Origin: Chitinispirillales bacterium
GTDB taxonomy: Bacteria; Fibrobacterota; Chitinivibrionia; Chitinivibrionales; Chitinispirillaceae
DNA length: 46,828 bases
Assembly: GCA_031286265.1 (NCBI GenBank)
Contig: JAITUP010000159.1
Coordinates: forward strand, 1-46,828
Reading direction: 5' to 3'
Part shown: positions 6,572 to 42,214 of the stretch, in pieces
Layout of the letters: each line of letters begins with the position of its first letter
Numbering within the stretch: the first letter of the stretch is position 1
Program-made: the position numbers and the translations under genes
The notes under the pieces: model-generated
Told to the model about the DNA's origin: nothing
Seen by the model: the letters and a program-made list of their open reading frames with translations, nothing else
The model's database searches: none

Positions 6572-7874
6572 ACGGTGGACGGATGTTGACAAACAAAATT
6601 ACATGTCACGATATGACGGTCATCAACATAAAATAGAAAAAGATTTACTATTACAGGCATACTCCACAACGCTTTTGGGCGCTGAAAATGATTTGACTAT
6701 GCACGGTGGCGGTAATACGTCGGTTAAAAAGAATATCGCCCATGAGGGCCGCGCAAAACGCGCGTTATACGTAAAGGCTTCCGGCACACCGCTAAATTCA
6801 TTTACTCCCGAACATTTTGTAGTGATGGATTTGGAGTTTTTGGAAAGTTTGAAAGATCGCGGTAGTCTTGATGATGAAACGATGGCGCGAGAGTTTAGAA
6901 ATCACCAACTGATAAATTGCGACAAATTACCGTCGATAGAATCGTTGATGCATGCGTTTATCCCCGCAAAATTCGTTGCGCATACTCATCCGTCAGCCAT
7001 ACTGAAAATCGCCAACAGGATAGGGGGAGGCGAACTTTTGAAAAAATGTTTTGGGGCCGATATAGCCGTTGTTCAATATGCGAAGATGGGATACGATTTG
7101 GCGAAGACGGTATCGGATGCCGTCAAACAGTCACCCGGCAGTATCGGCGTTGTTATGCGGCATCATGGATTGATCGTGTGGGGCGAAGATGCGCGGGAAG
7201 TTTATGAAAAAACGATTGACATCGTTACGAAAGCCGAAAAGTTTTTGGAAAAAATACTTGTCCGCCCGATTGCGTCGGCCAAGCAGGAGATGTCCACGAG
7301 TAAGTCAATACAAAATTTCAAGACAGTAGTCCCGATGGTAATGGAAAGTTTTTTGAAGATAGCGCAGGATAACGGCGATAAAAAATTTTCTGCTGAAAAA
7401 ATATCACTAACGCTATTAAACACCGCCGACGTTCTTGAACTTATAGGTTCGCCGGAGGGCAAAGATATCATTTGCAATCCGCCCATGACCCCAGATTACC
7501 CGATGCACGTGTGGATACTGCCGCTATGGACGGACGCTTGCCTTGAAGGCTCTTTCGAAAAAATATCTACGCTTATAGGTAATGACATTGGCGAATATGC
7601 CAGCAATCATAAAAAATATCTCAAAGCGCACGACGTGACAGACTTTTCCACGCCCGATCTTTTGCCTCGCGCCGTTGTTCATCCGCAAATCGGCGCGATA
7701 TGCTTTTGCCTCAGTGACAAAAACGCCTATAAAATCGCCGACTTCACCCGCCAAGCATTTTCAATCAGGCGGGCAATCGCAGAAACCGGGGGCGTTTACG
7801 AAAGTTTGCCGGAAAAATATCTGCTCGACATGCAATATCGAGGTTATATGCAAGGAGTAAGGCATGTCTGTTGA
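6564..7874 (+). CDS. Class II aldolase/adducin-domain protein (RhaD-like, without dehydrogenase domain)
   Basis: Zinc-dependent class II aldolase fold. The motifs are HGGGNTSVK near residue 47, a Glu in SIESLMHAF near 126, metal ligands HTHP at 140-143 and RHHGLIVWG near 199. The sequence resembles the aldolase half of the bifunctional rhamnulose-1-phosphate aldolase/lactaldehyde dehydrogenase proteins, which are normally near 650-700 residues with a C-terminal short-chain dehydrogenase. Here the protein stops at 436 residues just after the aldolase region. The substrate is probably a sugar phosphate but is not proven. It is the third gene of an overlapping operon with the ParA-like ATPase and a membrane protein, an odd setting for a sugar enzyme. 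Confidence 0.82.
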   Translation: MIKRWTDVDKQNYMSRYDGHQHKIEKDLLLQAYSTTLLGAENDLTMHGGGNTSVKKNIAHEGRAKRALYVKASGTPLNSFTPEHFVVMDLEFLESLKDRGSLDDETMAREFRNHQLINCDKLPSIESLMHAFIPAKFVAHTHPSAILKIANRIGGGELLKKCFGADIAVVQYAKMGYDLAKTVSDAVKQSPGSIGVVMRHHGLIVWGEDAREVYEKTIDIVTKAEKFLEKILVRPIASAKQEMSTSKSIQNFKTVVPMVMESFLKIAQDNGDKKFSAEKISLTLLNTADVLELIGSPEGKDIICNPPMTPDYPMHVWILPLWTDACLEGSFEKISTLIGNDIGEYASNHKKYLKAHDVTDFSTPDLLPRAVVHPQIGAICFCLSDKNAYKIADFTRQAFSIRRAIAETGGVYESLPEKYLLDMQYRGYMQGVRHVC

Positions 7875-11153: not shown

Positions 11154-12010
11154 ACGTAAAGTTTATATTCCGGCATTATTTTGTGGATATACTCGGCAAT
11201 GCAGATCATATCTTCGTTGCTGTGATATATGCTGATAGCAAGTTTTGGTTTATCGCGCAGGATAGTATTTTTCGCACCTTTGAGCGCGTCTAATTCCGCA
11301 CCTTCCACATCCATTTTTATAAACGTAACTTTGTCCTGTAAATTTAAGTTGTCAATGGATTTGACTTGAATTGAATTTATCTCTCCTTTAATTGCCGTGG
11401 CGCAATTTTCAGGACCATCATCGCTTATTATTTTTGATTCATCGCTTCCGCATGTATTAAATTTAACTTCGCCGTCTTTGTCATATACACCGGCGTTTAT
11501 CAGTGTTATTTTGGGGTTGTTTTCTCCATATTTTTTCTTGAGTTTTTGAAAGTTGCGCAGGTCCGGTTCAAACGCTATGACGGCCCTGTATTCTCCGCAA
11601 TGCTTAATAAAATCGTCTATGGTATTGCCGTTAAAGGCCCCGCAGTCGATAAAAACTTCATCTTTACCAAACCGCAATTCTCTGACGAGATATTTTTTTC
11701 TACTGTAGTATTTGGCCGGAAAATCTTTTTTAAGACCGGTTTGCCGATATTTCGTGAGACCGAGATATGTGTTTTTACTTTTTTCATCAGCCAGCGTAGC
11801 GGCTACGCGCTCTATTCTTTCGGCGTTTTCCGCGAGGTAGCTGTTTCGCTGCGCCTCCGCCAAAACGCTGCCCGGCACAAACGGAGCGCGGCTCATGGTG
11901 AACCACTGGAAGCGCTGATAGATGGGCACGAGGCGCTCACCGATAGCGGTATTCCGGAGGTTATGCTTATTCGCGAATCGTGTGACAACTGCAAATATCT
12001 TTTCGATCAT
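11090..12010 (-). CDS. FkbM family methyltransferase
   Basis: SAM-dependent methyltransferase of the FkbM group. The Rossmann motif EVFIDCGAFNGNTIDDF carries the SAM-binding acidic and glycine residues; VIAFEPDLRNFQKL and the post-core FIKMDVEGAELDALKGA with KLAISIYH are diagnostic. The first 90 residues are family-variable. Such enzymes usually O-methylate sugars in surface polysaccharides or natural products. GAGG lies upstream of the ATG at 12010. The 3' end overlaps the end of the DUF2400 gene by 64 bases on the other strand. It stands alone, so its substrate is unknown. Confidence 0.88.
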   Translation of the reverse strand: MIEKIFAVVTRFANKHNLRNTAIGERLVPIYQRFQWFTMSRAPFVPGSVLAEAQRNSYLAENAERIERVAATLADEKSKNTYLGLTKYRQTGLKKDFPAKYYSRKKYLVRELRFGKDEVFIDCGAFNGNTIDDFIKHCGEYRAVIAFEPDLRNFQKLKKKYGENNPKITLINAGVYDKDGEVKFNTCGSDESKIISDDGPENCATAIKGEINSIQVKSIDNLNLQDKVTFIKMDVEGAELDALKGAKNTILRDKPKLAISIYHSNEDMICIAEYIHKIMPEYKLYVQQHMLFPSCGETVLYATIPA

Positions 12011-32301: not shown

Positions 32302-32628
32302 ATGAAAATGACTGAAACCGTCAAAAAAGAACTCGACAAAATCGTAAGCACACTGGTCGAAACGGGGATCGTAACCAAAATCATCCTGTTTGGCTCACAT
32401 GCCCGTGGAGAAGGAACTGATGAAAGCGATATTGATTTATGTATCCTCTCATCAGCAGAAAAGCACCCGATTGATTTGATGAAGCAGTTTAACAGAAAAT
32501 TATGGGGGATAAAAAAACGGCCGATGGATTTGCTGGCGTATAATCAAGACTATTTTTACCGCCATGCAAAACGGTCAACATCTTTTGAATACGAAATTGC
32601 AGAAAACGGAGTATCAATATATGGCTGA
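32302..32628 (+). CDS. MNT-type nucleotidyltransferase, antitoxin of a HEPN/MNT pair
   Basis: 108 residues (ATG 32302; ATG 32308 has better spacing to GGGG). The minimal nucleotidyltransferase motif is IILFGSHARGEGTDESDIDL with the two catalytic Asp residues, and MDLLAYNQDYF supplies the third acidic position. In characterised systems such enzymes AMPylate and silence the HEPN RNase partner. The next gene overlaps by eight bases and encodes a HEPN protein. The promoter region is AT-rich with TATATTG near 32265. Confidence 0.9.
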   Translation: MKMTETVKKELDKIVSTLVETGIVTKIILFGSHARGEGTDESDIDLCILSSAEKHPIDLMKQFNRKLWGIKKRPMDLLAYNQDYFYRHAKRSTSFEYEIAENGVSIYG

Positions 32629-33034
32629 TAGCCTTGATGTCCTAAAATGGATTAAATTTGCTCAAAATGATTACGAGGCTGCCGTAATATTGTCAGAGCG
32701 ATTTCGCCCTCCAATAGAAGCAGTGTGCTATCATTGCCAACAATCAGCCGAAAAAATTTTGAAAGCATATGTTATTGCCCAAACAGGTAAGCGGGAAAAA
32801 ACGCATAATCTTGAATTAGTACTTAATGAATGTCTACCGTATTCAACAGATTTTAGTGCTCTCATAAACAATTGCTTAGATTTAAACCCGTATCTAAGCC
32901 TCGCACGTTACCCATCCACGATAGAACCGACCGCACACCACATGAAACAAGCCATAAAAGACGCAGGCGAAATATTGGAATTTACAAAGGCGAAACTGAA
33001 AGAAATAGGGTATGAATATTGCCCGGAAAATTAG
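32621..33034 (+). CDS. HEPN-domain protein, toxin of a HEPN/MNT pair
   Basis: 137 residues from ATG 32621. HEPN features: WIKFAQNDYEAAVIL, AVCYHCQQSAEKILKAYVI and THNLELVLNEC, then ARYPSTIEPTAHHMKQAI. It is all helical and would form a dimeric RNase or be an inactive structural HEPN. The canonical R-x4-6-H motif is not obvious, so this belongs to the H-x-QQAAEK branch, whose activity is less certain. It is coupled to the nucleotidyltransferase gene by an 8-base overlap. Confidence 0.88.
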   Translation: MADSLDVLKWIKFAQNDYEAAVILSERFRPPIEAVCYHCQQSAEKILKAYVIAQTGKREKTHNLELVLNECLPYSTDFSALINNCLDLNPYLSLARYPSTIEPTAHHMKQAIKDAGEILEFTKAKLKEIGYEYCPEN

Positions 33035-33066: not shown

Positions 33067-33204
33067 GATATTGACGGCAGTGACGAATTAAAATTATGGC
33101 TGGCGTTGTTTAACGCCAAAACGGAAGAAGAGTTGATAACACTTCAAAATATCGGAGGTGCAATTATGGTACAAGCAGTCGAAGCGTATCGCCACATTTC
33201 TGCG
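33067..33204 (+). pseudogene. C-terminal fragment of an Rpn/PDDEXK-family transposase-like gene, copy 1
   Basis: From 33067 the frame reads DGSDELKLWLALFNAKTEEE, then LITLQNIGG and AVEAYRHISA, the typical end of Rpn-type PD-(D/E)XK proteins (LWLxFLNAKTEEEL, then a Val/Ala-rich helix). Upstream is a stop and no N-terminal nuclease core. It ends where it meets the antisense yhcG fragment. A second fragment lies at 35768. Confidence 0.75.
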
Positions 33205-33652
33205 TCCAACCCATTTTTACCGCCGCTTCCGCATAATAAAGCGCTTCCTGAAGGTCTTTTACTTTACTCAATATAAGCCGATTATGACCCCAAGGCAAAA
33301 CCGCCACAACCTGTGGCAGAATGTCGTTTCCAGAAACTGCCGCAGCCTGTGGCAGAATTTGACCTGTCCCCGTGTAAAACTCATAAAAACGCTTCATATC
33401 CCACAAACTACGCGGCGAAAAACCTTCTGTATCTGGAAATTCACTCTTCAAATCAGCAGACAACTGCTCTACAACCTTTCCACCATACCCCTTGTCTAAT
33501 TTTTCGGAAGAAAGACGTTTGCCAATATTCCAGTAAAGTTGCGTTACAGTTGCACTTAATCTGTTCGCGATAACAACACGACTCATCTTTATTTCCGCAA
33601 TTATCTCGCGAAGCATCTCGCCATATTGACTTGTAAAAATACTTTTTCCCAT
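33164..33652 (-). pseudogene. Truncated YhcG/DUF1016 nuclease gene (N-terminal domain only)
   Basis: From ATG 33652, 162 codons encode the DUF1016 N-terminal DNA-binding domain: YGEMLREIIAEIKMSRVVIA, LYWNIGKRLSSEKLDKGYGG, VEQLSADLKSEFPDTEGFSP and PWGHNRLIL...KMGW. Full YhcG proteins run to about 350 residues with a PD-(D/E)XK nuclease domain at the end; here the sequence changes to antisense Rpn sequence after GWT, and the nuclease is lost. A repeat of the LPQ(A/V)VA segment is present (ILPQAAAV, ILPQVVAV). The frame also stays open upstream but that part is FISUMP and repeat sequence read in another frame. Confidence 0.8.
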
Positions 33653-33654
33653 GC

Positions 33655-33740
33655 TATGCCTTCGTAATCGGAACCCATGATCCACACTCCGAGCCTTGTG
33701 GCGCTCCACTGAAAACCAACACCAACCAAGCCAAATCGGA
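33655..33740 (-). pseudogene. FISUMP gene fragment
   Basis: In one reverse frame this reads FGLVGVGFQWSATRLGVWIM followed by GSDYEGIA, matching AGFWWSATKLGVWIMGFDYN in the intact FISUMP protein encoded at 35883-36533. It is joined on one side to the start of the yhcG fragment and on the other to direct repeat B. Confidence 0.75.
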
Positions 33741-34018
33741 CTGGTGGTAGGAAACGCAACAACTACGGTATCAATCCGTTTTCTACCCCATTTCTTTGAA
33801 AACGAGATGTTGGCTCGTAACACTACGATAGCAGTAAGGCTCCAGTGGCTCCCCATAAACGAGGGCAAAATGCTAAAAATATCGCGTAAACTAAGCACCA
33901 AACCGGGCAGACCCGCTAAACTGGATAGCATCGCATATCGGTGACAGAGCAATTTTTTTAAAAAATTGATTTTCAAATAAAATTTATAGTATATTATAAA
34001 TATGCGACCACAAGGGCT
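33718..34018 (+). repeat. Long direct repeat B, copy 1
   Basis: About 300 bases repeated in the same orientation at 35467-35770 with high identity from CAATCCGTTTTCTACC to ATGCGACCACAAGGGCT; the first 50 bases are more diverged. No convincing gene inside. The end holds TATAGTATATTATAAATATG, a possible promoter and start codon; here 31 codons follow before a stop. Confidence 0.88.
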
Positions 34019-34119
34019 AAATCTTTTAGTAGCCCCAAATGGAGGCAAGGCATGGGTGTTAAAAATGCTGTGCAAATTTCGCCGGGAGATGTCGTAAGTT
34101 GACATTTAAGGATAAAACA

Positions 34120-34542
34120 ATGAAAACAAACACATTACCCTATAAAGTGGCTTTTCGGATTAAAAGAAGCAAAGCCGATGTCTTCATACCATCGGATTTT
34201 TCCGATTTATCTGGGTATGATCAAGTTTTGCGAGTTTTGCGTAATATGGTACGCACCCGAAAATTAATAAAAATCGGTCGAGGCATTTATGCCAAAACAT
34301 GGGTTGCCGCAAACGGAGATGTTCGACCTACAAAGTTCATAGGTGACCTTGCGCGGCAAGCGTTGGAAAAATACGGAGTGGAGACCGGCAACTCCTCCTA
34401 TTGGAATGCCTACAATGCCGACACCTCTACTCAAATACCGACCGGCCGCGTAATAGCCGTATCCAAGCGCGTCCGCCGAAAAATCAGTTATAACGGATAT
34501 AGCGTGTCATTTGAGATGATGGGCGCTAAATATAGAAAATAA
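34120..34542 (+). CDS. AbiEi-like antitoxin (DUF6088 family)
   Basis: 140 residues from ATG 34120, with AAGG upstream. LPYKVAFRIKRSKADVFIPS and YDQVLRVLRNMVRTRKLIKI give a winged-helix N-terminal half typical of AbiEi-type regulators, followed by GRGIYAKTWVAANGDVRPTK and IPTGRVIAVSKRVRRKISYN. It should repress the operon and counter the AbiEii-type toxin encoded 23 bases downstream. The pair lies between the two copies of direct repeat B. Confidence 0.85.
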   Translation: MKTNTLPYKVAFRIKRSKADVFIPSDFSDLSGYDQVLRVLRNMVRTRKLIKIGRGIYAKTWVAANGDVRPTKFIGDLARQALEKYGVETGNSSYWNAYNADTSTQIPTGRVIAVSKRVRRKISYNGYSVSFEMMGAKYRK

Positions 34543-34565
34543 CGATTTAACACAAAGGTTGCCTA

Positions 34566-35501
34566 ATGAGGCCGAATTTTGAAAATTTCAAAATAATCGC
34601 ACAAGACTACGGTTTTGAAGAAACAATACCCGAAAAAGATTATTGGGTGATTTATCTTATAAAAAAAATGTCTGAGCTGTCTTTGCCAAATGGTTATCTT
34701 GTTTTCGGCGGTGGGACGAGCTTGGTCAAAGCGCATCGTGTAATAAAACGATTTAGTGAAGATATCGATTTTAGATTTATTACGGATATTTCACTTAACC
34801 GTTCCCAAAGAAGCAAGATAAAGCATATCATTACGGGTTACCTGAAAACATTAAATCCCCTTTTTCTTTTCGATGAACCTGAAGCCCACAACGAAAATAC
34901 ACTACTATTTTTTAAGCTGAATTATCCACGTGATGAACGATTTAACAAAAACAACGCCTTGCGTCCTTTTATCAAATTAGAAATATTTTTTTCTGATATA
35001 CATTACCCACCAATCAAATGTCCGCTTATATCATTTTATAACGAATATGAACACTTACAACCGGAAGTTGAATTTAATTGTGTGGCAATAGAGGACACGG
35101 CTATCGACAAGATTAGCTCGCTACTGTGGAGAATAGAGGTGGGCGAATACGAACCTACAGATATACGGCATTTGCACGATGTGGCAATGCTATGTGATAA
35201 AATAACAATTGATGATAAATTTAAGAAAACTTTAAATGTAGTATATAACAAAGATATTCGCACACGTGCTAAATCCGACAAAGAGCTAAAAGTATCAATA
35301 GACACCGTTACCACAAACCTTATGGAAAACAAGCGATATGCATATGATTACAAAAATTACGTATCTAACATGTCTTATGCCCCCGATTCGGATAATCTGT
35401 CTTTTGAGCAGGCACGAGACAAATTTGTACAACTCGCAGAAAAAATCGCTTTCGAACCTCCAAAAAACAACACCAGTCAAGCCAAACTTGGCCGGAGTTA
35501 G
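34566..35501 (+). CDS. AbiEii/AbiGii-family nucleotidyltransferase toxin
   Basis: 311 residues. The nucleotidyltransferase motif is VFGGGTSLVKAHRVIKRFSEDIDFRF, with the G-G-T-S and S-E-D-I-D residues that define AbiEii. EKDYWVIYLIKKM at the N-terminus and AIDKISSLLWRIEVGEYEPT, DIRHLHDVAML further on are standard. Such toxins modify tRNA or other RNA ends and give abortive phage defence. The last eleven residues (NNTSQAKLGRS) are encoded by the beginning of direct repeat B copy 2, so the native C-terminus may have been replaced. Confidence 0.9.
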   Translation: MRPNFENFKIIAQDYGFEETIPEKDYWVIYLIKKMSELSLPNGYLVFGGGTSLVKAHRVIKRFSEDIDFRFITDISLNRSQRSKIKHIITGYLKTLNPLFLFDEPEAHNENTLLFFKLNYPRDERFNKNNALRPFIKLEIFFSDIHYPPIKCPLISFYNEYEHLQPEVEFNCVAIEDTAIDKISSLLWRIEVGEYEPTDIRHLHDVAMLCDKITIDDKFKKTLNVVYNKDIRTRAKSDKELKVSIDTVTTNLMENKRYAYDYKNYVSNMSYAPDSDNLSFEQARDKFVQLAEKIAFEPPKNNTSQAKLGRS

Positions 35502-35770
35502 AAAGCGCAACAAACACGACACCAATCCGTTTTCTACCTCATTTCTTTGAAGACGGGATGTTGGCTCGTAACACTACGATAGCAGTAAGACTCCAGTGGC
35601 TCCCCATAAACGAGGGCAAAATGCTAAAAATATCGCGTAAACTAAGCACCAAGCCGGGCAGACCCGCTAAACTGGATAGCATCGCATATCGGTGACAGAG
35701 TAATTTTTTAAAAAAATTGATTTTCAAATAAAATTTATAGTATATTATAAATATGCGACCACAAGGGCTG
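35467..35770 (+). repeat. Long direct repeat B, copy 2
   Basis: Second copy of 33718-34018. It begins inside the 3' end of the AbiEii gene and ends with ATGCGACCACAAGGGCT, after which it is fused to an Rpn gene fragment. Confidence 0.88.
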
Positions 35771-35875
35771 GCATTGTTTAACGCCAAAACGGAAGAAGAG
35801 TTGATAACACTTCAAAATATCGGAGGTACAGTTATGGCCCAAGCAGTCGTGGCATACCGACATGTCTCCGCAAAG
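35768..35875 (+). pseudogene. C-terminal fragment of an Rpn/PDDEXK-family transposase-like gene, copy 2
   Basis: Reads LALFNAKTEEELITLQNIGG, then AQAVVAYRHVSAK, almost the same as the fragment at 33067 from CTGGCxTTG onward. It is fused in frame to the ATG at 35753 at the end of direct repeat B. No nuclease core. Confidence 0.75.
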
Positions 35876-35882
35876 ATTAATA

Positions 35883-36533
35883 TTAATGCCTCCGATCCTG
35901 AACACAGCGGACGGATAAGCCGGCGTGCTCGCCGATGTAGTTTATTTCCATGCCGTTGTAGTCAAAACCCATGATCCATACACCGAGCTTTGTAGCGCTC
36001 CACCAAAAACCCGCCCAGCCGGCGCCGATAAAAGCGCGGCGGCAACTACGGCCATAGCCGCCGGGCAAGGCCGAAAAACCAAACTCATCTGTACCGTTGC
36101 CGCTATCATTCCAACCAATTTGTGATTTTAACCTCTCACCGGCAACCTCAAAACCACCGGCGGCCAAAACCAAATCGTCCCAATCTACATCAGATGGCAA
36201 ACGCCATCCAAGCGGGCAAGCGCCAAGAGCGGCATATCCATAATATAATCTGCCATAAGTTGCGCAATAGAAATCACTATTACCATAACACCAGCTGTTG
36301 CTCGTTTCGTAGTTGAGATTTTCCGCCATCCATATCCTGTCGCCTATCCTCACCGTGCGATAACTTTGACCGTCTCGCGAATCAACAAGTGAGCCATAAC
36401 TTATATACGGATTAAATTGCAAACCGCCGCCGCCCATACCGTTGTTGACGCCGTTATCGCCGCACCCCGCAAAAAGAGCCGCACAGATTATCACAACGCC
36501 AAACGCAAGCCGCACAAATATTGATTTTATCAT
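35883..36533 (-). CDS. FISUMP-domain lipoprotein
   Basis: 216 residues. A lipoprotein signal peptide ends with LFAGC near residue 24, followed by a Gly/Asn-rich linker. The FISUMP domain fills the rest: DSRDGQSYRTVRIGDRIWMA, WCYGNSDFYCATYGRLYYGY, CPLGWRLPSDVDW, FGFSALPGGYG, WWSATKLGVWIMGFDYNG and a final SVRCVQDRR. Paired Cys residues suggest disulfides outside the cytoplasm. It lies 15 bases after the OmpA-like gene on the reverse strand, so both are probably one operon. Its 3' end abuts the Rpn fragment, and a fragment of a close relative lies 2 kb away. Confidence 0.9.
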   Translation of the reverse strand: MIKSIFVRLAFGVVIICAALFAGCGDNGVNNGMGGGGLQFNPYISYGSLVDSRDGQSYRTVRIGDRIWMAENLNYETSNSWCYGNSDFYCATYGRLYYGYAALGACPLGWRLPSDVDWDDLVLAAGGFEVAGERLKSQIGWNDSGNGTDEFGFSALPGGYGRSCRRAFIGAGWAGFWWSATKLGVWIMGFDYNGMEINYIGEHAGLSVRCVQDRRH

Positions 36534-37885: not shown

Positions 37886-40279
37886 TTACCGGTAGTATGT
37901 GACTATGATTCTGACTTGGCCGTTGCTACCCGCTGAACTTGTACGATGGTTGCCATCGTCACTTCGGCTACTAGTTGCATATCCACCGTCACCACCTCTG
38001 CCTACCGAACCACTAGGAAAGGGATTTACAAAACCAATTCTTGTAATTCCTGCTCCACCACCTGTGCCTCCTAGTCTACTATCCCAATTTCCACCAATAC
38101 CCGAGGATCCATGAGCTAGGGTAATTGGTGTTGTTGCAGGATTCACGCTTACTTCTCCGCGATTCCCACCATTCCCACCATTTCCACCCCTGCCCCCTCC
38201 TGCGGTTAGAACGATGTTTCCACCACTTCGAACCCAAGTTACAATTGTAGGGGCACCATCGCCACCGTTGCCGCCCCACCGTGAACTAGTACCCGTAGAT
38301 GCATGAAATGTCGCTCCGCCACCACCACCACTACCCACCGCTATATTAAATGTAGCCGATTCAATTACATCAAAACTCCAATTAGCAACCCCACCACCGC
38401 CGCCACTACCACCAGTCCCACTACCCATCCAGCCTTCATAGACACAGACCATAGGAGGCCAGATGCTGTTTCTACATGCATCAGCACTGTGCCCACCTTG
38501 TCCACCACCACCACCACCAGCGGCATAAATTTCTATTGTAGCGGGAAAAGTTACATTATTTGGCAAAGTATAGTTATAGGCTCCTGTACGAAACGAAAAT
38601 GTAGTGTCAATTCTACGGCGTTCTGCGAAATTAGCACGAATCGTTGCATCGGAATTCAAGATGACTTTTGCGTCGTGTCTAGAAGTCGGATTGGCTATGT
38701 TTGCTGTGCCACTTGTCACCGTCCAGTTAATAAATCTAAAGCCATCATTGAGGGAGGTCGATATATTAACCTCTCTATTGAAGAAATCGTAGATAGTAGG
38801 CATTGTATACGTAGTGCCATTGATACTTACTGTACCACCCGCCAAATTTCGGTCGATTGTAAGTGTATATCGTATTAATTCAAAATTAGCTCGAATCGTT
38901 GCGTTTGAGTTCAAGCGAATAGTCGGATTCGTGGAGTTAGCATTGCCGCTAACAAAACTTACCGCGCCGTCCACTGTCCAATTGATGAATCTATAGCCAT
39001 TTGCTATATCGGCTCTTAAATTGACCACCGCCCCGGAATCGTGAGTTGTGGGTTCAGTTGATGGTAGGTTGTCGACAAACACTGTACCACCGGCTAGGTT
39101 ACGTGTAATCGTCAACGTGTAAGTTCGCTGGAAATTGGCGCGGATTGTAGCGTCTGAGCTTAAGCTAACAATTGGATCCACAGAATTGATACTGCCGTTA
39201 ACGAAATTCACTGCACCGCCTACTGTCCAGTTGACAAATCTGTAGCCATTTGCCGCGTTAGCTCTTATTTCGATAGGGGTTCCATGATTGTGTGGTGTGG
39301 CTCCACTCATTATTGGTGTTCCATTGTTGGCACTCACCGTGTTGCCGCCAATTGTGGGGGCTACATCGGTTGTAAGCGTGTAGGTATTTATTAGAAATTC
39401 AGCGGTCAGCGTCAAGTTGTTATTTATGGTGACCTGCATGGAAGGATCCGAAATCATTAGTCCACCCGATGACCAGCCAGTAAATGTGTGACCTTCCGCT
39501 GGGGTAGCCGTTGCGATGAGCGTTGTCCCAGTGGCATAACTTCCACCTGGGGGATCATACAATACGCTACCGCCATTCGGTGGGGTAACAATAGTTTCAA
39601 TCGTAAAATTACCGCCCGGAATTTGTACGAAGTTAGCGGTTAGCTCTTTGTCGCTATCCATGGTAATCCCCACTTGACGAGCTGTAGAAGTTGACGCTCC
39701 AGTCCATCCGGTGAACGCATAACCTTCTTCTGGATTGGCCGTTACAATAACTTGCGCTCCATGGTTGTGCGCTGTATTCCCGGTTGATGTAGTGCCATTG
39801 ACTGTCACAGTGCCGCCAATAGTCGAACTTGGATTAATCATCAGCGTGCGCCTTTGCAACTCAAATATAGCAAGTAATGTTTTGCTGTCGTCCATGGTGA
39901 CAGTAATATTAGATGACGTAGACGTTGACGCTCCATTCCAGAGTGCAAATCTGTAGCCATCTGTTACTGTAGTCGCCGTTACGGTGACCTCCGTTCCATA
40001 GGCATATAGTCTTTGATCAGGGCTACGCGATACGCGGCCACCATCTTGTGGAATACTAATATCAAGTGTATACCATTGCGGCTCAAATACAGCAAACAAC
40101 GCTTTGTGGCTGTCCATGTTAATGGTGATGTTGGGCGATGTAGATGTTGATGCTCCATTCCATCTTGCGAAAGTATAGCCCGCTCTCGGAATAGCTGTTG
40201 CAGTGACCTGAGTTCCGTGTATGTGAGTTGTTGCTTCGGTTGATTCAACGCTATTGACAAGCACCGTACCACCAACCAT
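37886..40279 (-). CDS. Main part of a large surface protein: beta-repeats plus glycine-rich C-terminal domain (5' end frameshifted)
   Basis: 797 residues from the first in-frame ATG, which is not a plausible start: there is no signal peptide, and the frame stays open and protein-like up to 40507 (RWIDNINVPVRVGTGLNFRV, then PFFSTDEGIFYD). Seven beta-repeat modules of about 70-85 residues follow, each with G-T-x-V, H-x-x-G or Y-x-x-G, G-Y-x-F-x-x-W and a closing L-x-A-x-F pattern. The last 200 residues are extremely Gly-rich (AAGGGGGGQGG, GSGGGGGATF, GGGRGGNGG) and end QVRIIVTYYR, as in Gly-rich surface domains. With the upstream lipoprotein start at 40811 it would form one protein of nearly 980 residues. 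As it stands the gene is probably inactive or needs a frameshift. Confidence 0.75.
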   Translation of the reverse strand: MVGGTVLVNSVESTEATTHIHGTQVTATAIPRAGYTFARWNGASTSTSPNITINMDSHKALFAVFEPQWYTLDISIPQDGGRVSRSPDQRLYAYGTEVTVTATTVTDGYRFALWNGASTSTSSNITVTMDDSKTLLAIFELQRRTLMINPSSTIGGTVTVNGTTSTGNTAHNHGAQVIVTANPEEGYAFTGWTGASTSTARQVGITMDSDKELTANFVQIPGGNFTIETIVTPPNGGSVLYDPPGGSYATGTTLIATATPAEGHTFTGWSSGGLMISDPSMQVTINNNLTLTAEFLINTYTLTTDVAPTIGGNTVSANNGTPIMSGATPHNHGTPIEIRANAANGYRFVNWTVGGAVNFVNGSINSVDPIVSLSSDATIRANFQRTYTLTITRNLAGGTVFVDNLPSTEPTTHDSGAVVNLRADIANGYRFINWTVDGAVSFVSGNANSTNPTIRLNSNATIRANFELIRYTLTIDRNLAGGTVSINGTTYTMPTIYDFFNREVNISTSLNDGFRFINWTVTSGTANIANPTSRHDAKVILNSDATIRANFAERRRIDTTFSFRTGAYNYTLPNNVTFPATIEIYAAGGGGGGQGGHSADACRNSIWPPMVCVYEGWMGSGTGGSGGGGGVANWSFDVIESATFNIAVGSGGGGGATFHASTGTSSRWGGNGGDGAPTIVTWVRSGGNIVLTAGGGRGGNGGNGGNRGEVSVNPATTPITLAHGSSGIGGNWDSRLGGTGGGAGITRIGFVNPFPSGSVGRGGDGGYATSSRSDDGNHRTSSAGSNGQVRIIVTYYR

Positions 40280-40885: not shown

Positions 40886-41052
40886 CAATATAAATCACCG
40901 GCATCACAAAAAACAAATGTTTTTCAAAAATATTTTAACCCTGATCTTGATTTTAAACAATCGATAAATTATATTCGCTCTATCCCCTGCTCCCTTCACC
41001 GGGTTACAGAGTTTAAAAAATAACAAACACGGAGTGAAAAAATGCGTTTACA
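40886..41052 (+). repeat. Long direct repeat C, copy 1 (orphan leader and start codon of the glycoside hydrolase gene)
   Basis: 167 bases nearly identical to 42048-42214 (offset 1162), from CAATATAAATCACCGGC to ATGCGTTTACA. Only a few bases differ. This copy has the start codon at 41042 but then runs into the inserted cassette. Confidence 0.93.
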
Positions 41053-41056
41053 ATAG

Positions 41057-41467
41057 TCACGGGTATTTTTTCTTTATTTTCTTGCATTCAACCTCTACAT
41101 CATCAAGCTTCCTTTGCGCCCATTCTTTGGTAAATTTAGTTGTATCGTATTCATTATATTTGGCAGCTCTAGTAATCTTGTAAAGCTCTGAGTATGGCTT
41201 ATATATATCAACAAATACTATATCTATCATGGCCCTCAGCCTTTCGCCATGATCGTAGTAATTTTCACAAAAGAAAGCCTTTTTTCTGTTTCTGTTGATT
41301 TTAGGTACCACTAACGGCAAAATTGCCTCAAAATAATGCAAGGCAGTATAATACGAAACAGTGACATATCAGTCTCTAAAATGACTTTCTTTGTCGTAGG
41401 AATTTATAAATTCAAGCATTTTACGGTTGTGTTTAGCCTGTATTTCATGTCGATTTTGTAATGGCAT
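41057..41467 (-). pseudogene. HEPN-like protein gene with an in-frame TGA
   Basis: From ATG 41467 (sharing one base with the stop of the upstream gene) the frame reads MPLQNRHEIQAKHNRKMLEF, ESHFRD, then TGA at 41371-41369, then YVTVSYYTALHYFEAILPLV to a stop at 41057. The joined sequence RD-x-YVTVSYYTALHYFEA matches HEPN-type proteins, where this position is usually Trp (WAVTxxFYxALHY); a TGG to TGA change explains it. HGERLRAM and YSELYKITRAAKY fit the later helices. It would be 136 residues with the stop read through. Most likely a nonsense mutation; translation from an internal start would make only the C-terminal 94 residues. Confidence 0.7.
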
Positions 41468-41958
41468 TATATATTCACCTTGTGGCATGGGAAGTCGTGA
41501 TTTATTAGATGCTGATCAAGTTTATGATCTGTAATAACCCAAAAAGCGCAAAAGTAGCCATTTTTTTTGAAAATATTTATTTCAAGCTCTGCCGCCATTT
41601 GCATTATTTGGGGCATATCGCTTTCATATTTATGCGATATTACCGTAAGCGTGGCTGGCGCCTTAGTTGTATAGTCCAAACCTATTCTGTGCTGAAGTAT
41701 GCAATTTTTAGGGACGAAGTGCAAAAGTTCTCTGTAAAATTCTTCGGCTGGGTCTATCATTTCAATAATTAAATCTTTTGCTGTCTTACCTGTAACCTTT
41801 TTAATAGCTTTCAGGACGGATTTGATGGCGTCTCTCTTGTCGGCATCGTAGTCCATTTCATATTCACGTCCTGAGCCGATACTAATTTCATCCAACATCT
41901 TGATAATGTCACTGTCAACTGCAACGGATGCAGATTTAGCTGTTTCCAGGCTTACCAT
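41467..41958 (-). CDS. Protein of unknown function, partner of the HEPN-like gene
   Basis: 163 residues from ATG 41958 (AAGGAA upstream); an ATG at 41991 would add 11. The N-terminal half is helical (SDIIKMLDEISIGSG, KRDAIKSVLKAIKKVTG) and the C-terminal half looks alpha/beta with LTVISHKYESDMPQIMQMAA and YFCAFWVITDHKL. I do not recognise the family. It overlaps the HEPN-like gene (TAATG), and both are strongly AT-rich and lie between the copies of direct repeat C, which suggests a two-gene toxin-antitoxin or defence cassette. Confidence 0.65.
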   Translation of the reverse strand: MVSLETAKSASVAVDSDIIKMLDEISIGSGREYEMDYDADKRDAIKSVLKAIKKVTGKTAKDLIIEMIDPAEEFYRELLHFVPKNCILQHRIGLDYTTKAPATLTVISHKYESDMPQIMQMAAELEINIFKKNGYFCAFWVITDHKLDQHLINHDFPCHKVNI

Positions 41959-42047: not shown

Positions 42048-42214
42048 CAATATAAATCACCGGCATCACAAAAAACAAATGTTTTTCAAAAATATTTTAA
42101 CCCTGACCTTGATTTTAAACAATCGATAAATTATATTCGCTTTATCCCCTGCTCCCTTCACCGGGTTACAGAGTTTAAAAAACAACAAACACGGAGTGAA
42201 AAAATGCGTTTACA
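42048..42214 (+). repeat. Long direct repeat C, copy 2 (functional leader of the glycoside hydrolase gene)
   Basis: Copy attached to the glycoside hydrolase gene; includes its ribosome binding site (CGGAGTGA) and first four codons. Confidence 0.93.

What the first reader, a model, noticed from the sequence alone, without database searches (positions are those of the whole stretch)
41057..41958. Unrecognised two-gene HEPN-type cassette with a TGA at an expected Trp
A 163-residue protein of no recognised family is coupled (TAATG) to a HEPN-like gene interrupted by TGA where homologues carry Trp. TGA is used as a normal stop across the window, so recoding is unlikely; the mutation may have disarmed a toxin. 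The partner may be a new antitoxin or effector family.
Basis: partly seen in the sequence, partly recalled or inferred. Interest (0 to 1): 0.58.

Follow-up and report, generated by a model that had tools for sequence, protein, structure and literature searches.

The report
Broken HEPN gene with phage-borne partner
A small two-gene cassette that also rides in phage genomes, and looks like a toxin with its upstream partner, sits here with the toxin-like gene broken by a stop codon; the broken copy is ordinary decay, but the gene family itself is absent from the protein-family libraries searched.

Summary
On the minus strand a 163-aa gene (P1) overlaps, at TAATG, a 136-codon frame (P2) interrupted by one TGA at codon 33. 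All 25 distinct relatives carry Trp there. P2 read through gives a confident AlphaFold2 model (pLDDT 88.8) with a HEPN fold. TGA is an ordinary stop in this genome: prfB is present and no tRNA-Sec passes its cut-off. The TGA is therefore a loss-of-function mutation or an assembly error, not recoding. Intact pairs exist: a second in the same genome, in a small island at the tmRNA gene; others scattered over Fibrobacterota; and 10 of 10 IMG/VR viral contigs read for a partner. Phage structural or packaging genes lie near the pair in 6 of 11 viral contigs. Neither protein has a significant model in Pfam, NCBIfam, PADLOC or PHROGs. P1 has an alpha/beta topology compatible with a minimal nucleotidyltransferase but lacks GSX10DXD; P2 lacks a conserved Rx4-6H. 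The pair fails the defining motifs of HepT/MntA while resembling its layout. A 167-bp direct repeat of the downstream gene's leader brackets the cassette. Best reading: a phage-spread, HEPN/MNT-like toxin-antitoxin module with its HEPN arm inactivated. Toxicity and neutralisation are inferred.

The parts
41467..41958 (-). P1, 163 aa, upstream partner gene (stop TAA included)
   Evidence: AF2 model pLDDT 82.0, pTM 0.75; homologues by sequence in 5 of 150 genomes, own genome included
41057..41467 (-). P2, HEPN-fold gene of 136 codons plus stop, interrupted at codon 33
   Evidence: read-through model pLDDT 88.8, HEPN matches
41369..41371 (-). In-frame TGA at the position of an invariant Trp
   Evidence: Trp in 25 of 25 distinct relatives
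41465..41469 (-). TAATG overlap coupling P1 and P2
   Evidence: sequence
40886..41052 (+). Direct repeat, copy 1: leader plus first codons of the downstream glycosidase-like gene
   Evidence: 3 mismatches in 167
42048..42214 (+). Direct repeat, copy 2: the same leader in place before the ATG at 42204

Best explanation
This is a mobile two-gene module that works like a HEPN/MNT toxin-antitoxin pair. P2 (HEPN fold) would be the growth-arresting or RNA-acting arm; P1, translated first and coupled to it, would hold it in check by binding rather than by AMPylation, since P1 lacks the nucleotidyltransferase motif. The module is carried by phages, plausibly as a defence against competing phages, and has been dropped into bacterial chromosomes. 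In the window it landed in front of a glycosidase-like gene, leaving a 167-bp duplication, and P2 was then knocked out by a nonsense codon while P1 stayed open. Shown: pair, coupling, conservation, HEPN fold by model, phage carriage, the direct repeat, the stop. Inferred: toxicity, neutralisation by binding, defence role, order of events.
For: P2 fold: VIA-align Z 13.0 to HEPN AF_0298 (2hsb, rmsd 2.8, 117 aligned), 11.4 to sacsin HEPN, 10.5 to HepT 6m6w; most of the first 19 rows are HEPN entries. Seven P2 positions are the same in all 16 rows of A9 (His7, Asn14, Trp33, Tyr40, His73, Leu95, Tyr104), the window's TGA being read as Trp. A P1-type ORF lies directly upstream of P2 in 15 of 16 Fibrobacterota loci, in 10 of 10 viral contigs read for it (23-nt overlap to 9-nt gap) and in a Planctomycetia and a KSB1 MAG. 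Scattered distribution: 11 of 167 phylum genomes. Phage genes near the pair: TerL and head-tail connector (L044), TerS and TerL (L057), portal, scaffold and capsid (L058), TerL (L059), portal and neck (L047/L121), virion protein (L046). Second own-genome copy in an island with an integrase at tmRNA. P1 is 5' of the HEPN gene, as MNT is in MNT/HEPN (PMC3710099, section 14 read).
Against: No sequence-profile support for HEPN or MNT membership: hhalign not significant, though the one positive control (PF05168-like against DUF86-like HEPN) also failed, so that test is weak. P1's best structural Z is 6.5, to a non-nucleotidyltransferase, and many KH/RbfA-type alpha/beta proteins score alike. The catalytic Rx4-6H is not conserved in P2. 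G137 has P2 open and P1 reduced to its last 26 codons. In 6 of 11 viral contigs the pair sits by structural or packaging genes, which would also fit a role in the phage's own late functions. No PADLOC family for the window proteins and only weak ones for relatives.
Confidence: 0.55

Rival explanations
1. The TGA is a sequencing or assembly error and the pair is intact in the living cell; everything else stands.
For: One MAG-type contig of a 278-contig assembly; otherwise P2 has no other stop or frameshift and keeps all positions invariant in the family.
Against: Other loci in the phylum are also broken: G009:C100 has an in-frame TAA near the C-terminus of P2, G004:C34 is a fragment, G137 lost most of P1, so decay of this cassette is recurrent.
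Confidence: 0.12
2. The pair is not a toxin-antitoxin module but a phage-derived accessory complex (virion assembly, late regulation or host takeover) in which a non-catalytic HEPN domain binds RNA or protein and P1 is its structural partner.
For: Phage structural or packaging genes near the pair in 6 of 11 viral contigs; no conserved Rx4-6H; P2 retained without full P1 in G137.
Against: The pair also stands alone between housekeeping genes of bacteria without phage genes seen nearby, and in C258 it shares a promoter-like leader with two other two-gene modules, as addiction or defence modules might.
Confidence: 0.25
3. TGA is read as Trp or selenocysteine and P2 is made in full.
For: Trp is the residue in all 25 relatives.
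Against: prfB present, no tRNA-Sec over the family's cut-off, TGA ends ordinary genes such as the class II aldolase.
Confidence: 0.03

Closest known systems
HepT/MntA (HEPN/MNT, type VII toxin-antitoxin), Class I and Class II
   Same: Two coupled genes, alpha/beta protein first, HEPN protein second; P2 keeps a conserved Tyr and lacks RX4H, as described for Class II HEPN proteins (PMC7641770, passages).
   Different: P1 has no GSX10DXD in any of 25 distinct P1 readings (the window's two starts counted apart), and no loose match in their last 90 residues; no PF01909 or PF05168 match. A canonical pair with both Pfam domains lies in the same window at 32302-33034.
Tha, prophage HEPN defence of Staphylococcus aureus (PMC11087260, passages)
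   Same: HEPN protein carried by prophages.
   Different: Tha-1 is a 301-aa protein with an ArgX4His motif; P2 is 136 aa with a partner gene and no conserved Rx4-6H.
AF_0298 HEPN protein (PDB 2hsb)
   Same: Closest solved fold to P2, Z 13.0.
   Different: 10% identity over the alignment; no relation detected by sequence profile.

Membership tests
HEPN superfamily | All-helical HEPN fold | tested here: met
   AF2 pLDDT 88.8; Z 13.0 to 2hsb and many other HEPN entries at Z 9-11.5. Caution: the tool notes that helical bundles can reach 13 by chance, and an alpha-catenin row scored 10.1.
HEPN superfamily | Catalytic Rx4-6H (common, not universal: Table 1 of PMC3710099 lists families without it; section 5 part 1 read) | tested here: not met
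   No conserved Rx4-6H in the family; conserved instead are His7, His73, Tyr104.
HepT/MntA type VII toxin-antitoxin | Antitoxin with GSX10DXD | tested here: not met
   0 of 25 distinct P1 readings by strict pattern; 0 of 25 by a loose pattern in the last 90 residues. 5 of 25 match loosely somewhere, two of them the window's two P1 readings; these lie outside the last 90 residues.
HepT/MntA type VII toxin-antitoxin | Toxin with RX4HXY (Class I) | tested here: not met
HepT/MntA type VII toxin-antitoxin | Nucleotidyltransferase fold of the antitoxin | tested here: inconclusive
   P1 matches 2rff Z 6.2 (98 aligned, rmsd 3.9), 1ylq Z 6.1, AadA Z 5.4, but unrelated alpha/beta proteins tie with these.
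HepT/MntA type VII toxin-antitoxin | Antitoxin gene 5' of and coupled to the HEPN gene | tested here: met
   TAATG in the window; overlaps or short gaps in relatives.
HepT/MntA type VII toxin-antitoxin | Toxicity of HEPN, AMPylation by MNT | not testable with these tools
   needs experiments
Known anti-phage defence systems (PADLOC-DB 2.0.0) | Match to a system protein | tested here: inconclusive
   No family for the window proteins at E 10; for relatives only weak matches, best 0.0032.

The most novel reading that the evidence does not exclude
A phage-spread toxin-antitoxin or abortive-infection class in which the antitoxin is a catalytically dead nucleotidyltransferase fold that restrains a non-canonical HEPN protein by binding alone, a binding-only counterpart of the AMPylating HEPN/MNT systems, often carried near phage structural and packaging genes.
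Probability: 0.22. Interest if true: 0.62.

Novelty: new variant of a known kind. Interest (0 to 1): 0.42.

Why it matters
[quoted passage not shown] A related layout without either signature motif, moving in phages, would bear on how a binding-only and an enzymatic antidote are related, and would add a family that motif- and profile-based defence finders miss. The broken copy itself is ordinary decay of a mobile cassette.

Tried and rejected
Recoding of TGA was tested and set aside. Pfam, NCBIfam, PADLOC and PHROGs gave no significant family for P1 or P2 (a 0.042 hit to a CysB model and 0.025-0.07 PHROG hits taken as noise; YaaC at 0.0014 for the P2 of L044, below its cut-off). PDB sequence searches gave only chance matches. 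Plasmid searches by protein and phage-record searches by protein found nothing. hhalign of P1 against 21 MNT proteins and of P2 against HEPN-T and HEPN-M sets from relatives was not significant; the HEPN-T against HEPN-M positive control failed too, so this says little. The viral structure library gave no clear match for P1. A general link between the cassette and flanking direct repeats was tested: of 25 loci examined, three exceed the shuffled null clearly (window; C258, where the repeat is a shared leader; G113:C47, 37 bp), so it is not a general feature. The empty site could not be defined: three congeners with the orthologous glycosidase-like gene show no DNA similarity to the leader, and searches list no P1 or P2 match in those contigs. 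Literature: four searches brought no paper on this pair in the listings; only PMC3710099 (abstract, passages, section 5 part 1, section 14), PMC10799925, PMC11087260 and PMC7641770 (passages) were opened.

Full report
What is there. On the minus strand, P1 (41958-41467, 163 aa) overlaps P2 (41467-41057) by one base in TAATG. P2 is open for 136 codons apart from one TGA at codon 33 (41369-41371). By chance a frame of this length and composition would hold about 11 stops, with P(<=1) = 0.0001, so this is a coding frame that was interrupted recently or is mis-called. The cassette is AT-rich (about 34-39% GC in 500-base windows) against 46-59% in the flanking genes.

Relatives. The window is G000:C70 of a 2.6-Mb, 278-contig genome, 92% complete. 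The contig of the same-genus relative G002 matches in length and position a MAG named Chitinispirillales, so the host belongs to Fibrobacterota. A second pair with both genes open lies in the same genome at C258 (P1 50% identical over residues 67-169, P2 33%). A profile of P2 finds 16 loci in 11 of 167 genomes of the phylum, with a P1-type ORF directly upstream in 15 of 16. By plain sequence search P1 was matched in 5 of 150 genomes, own genome included; elsewhere P1 is assigned by place, length and pattern, which is weaker. Two further MAGs, a Planctomycetia and a KSB1, carry the same arrangement.

The Trp. It is present in 15 of 15 relatives in A9 and 13 of 13 in A2, 25 distinct sequences. 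Other broken copies exist: G009:C100 (P1 and P2 in one frame, TAA near the end of P2), G004:C34 (a fragment of the end of P1 and the start of P2) and G137 (P2 open, only the last 26 codons of P1). Decay thus hits both genes; the G137 case does not fit a strict toxin-antitoxin pair.

Structure. P2 modelled with 16 aligned sequences has pLDDT 88.8 and five helices. Foldseek alone gives no match at E <= 0.001 but ranks a HEPN protein first. VIA-align gives Z 13.0 to 2hsb, 11.5 to 2q00, 11.4 to the sacsin HEPN and about 10 to several HepT structures; the first clearly non-HEPN helical row, alpha-catenin, is at 10.1. P1 has pLDDT 82.0 with a helix-strand-strand-helix-strand-helix core. Nucleotidyltransferases 2rff and 1ylq are second and third by Z (6.2, 6.1) and align to near the C-terminus, but RbfA- and KH-type proteins tie with them. 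Thus P2 is HEPN by fold and P1 is only compatible with a nucleotidyltransferase fold. Signature motifs of HepT/MntA are missing in both.

Phage carriage. Protein searches of IMG/VR gave 11 distinct viral contigs; 10 were read for a partner ORF and all 10 have one. L042 is closest to the window (P2 50%, P1 53% identical) and carries an integrase and a repressor-type gene. Phage head, packaging, connector or virion genes lie near the pair in L044, L057, L058, L059, L047/L121 and L046, 6 of 11; none was identified in the stretches read of L042, L043, L045, L056 and L118, whose neighbours were only partly searched.

Mobility in the host. In C258 the pair lies in an island of about 4.6 kb between the tmRNA 3' end and an imperfect 35-nt copy of it (7081-7115 and 11654-11688, 83%), with an integrase-family ORF. 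Three two-gene modules there share a promoter-like leader, found nowhere else in the genome by DNA search. In the window the cassette is bracketed by a 167-bp direct repeat with 3 mismatches, the leader and first codons of the downstream gene, which has a CBM_4_9 domain and a weak cellulase match below Pfam's cut-off. The window also holds other duplicated stretches, so the repeat may reflect a duplication-prone genome rather than the cassette's own mobility. How the insertion arose is not resolved.

Reading. The arrangement works most like a HEPN/MNT toxin-antitoxin or abortive-infection module; it is not a member of HepT/MntA by the tests made. The TGA most likely disables P2 here. Toxicity, neutralisation and anti-phage action remain inferences. 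No paper on this pair appeared in four searches of the open library.

Noticed in passing
window 32302-33034 (+): A canonical MNT/HEPN pair (PF01909 E 6e-12, PF05168 E 4e-20) with overlapping genes, about 8 kb from the finding.
   Followed up: partly
window 34566-35501 (+): An AbiEii-family nucleotidyltransferase (E 5e-26), so this end of the window holds several toxin-antitoxin-type modules.
   Followed up: no
L026 7081-11688 (G000:C258): Island at the 3' end of the tmRNA gene with an integrase-family ORF and three two-gene modules preceded by a shared leader repeat; one includes an IrrE-like (M78) protein below Pfam's cut-off, one has no family.
   Followed up: partly
G000 whole genome: 15 NTP_transf_2 (MNT-type) matches in one 2.6-Mb genome, and 24 to 30 in three relatives.
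   Followed up: no
window 37886-40279 (-): 797-aa protein with six InlB-type B repeat matches, next to an OmpA-family protein and a Fib_succ_major protein.
   Followed up: no
window 33098-36011: Several duplicated stretches of 82-92% identity around Fib_succ_major-type genes.
   Followed up: no
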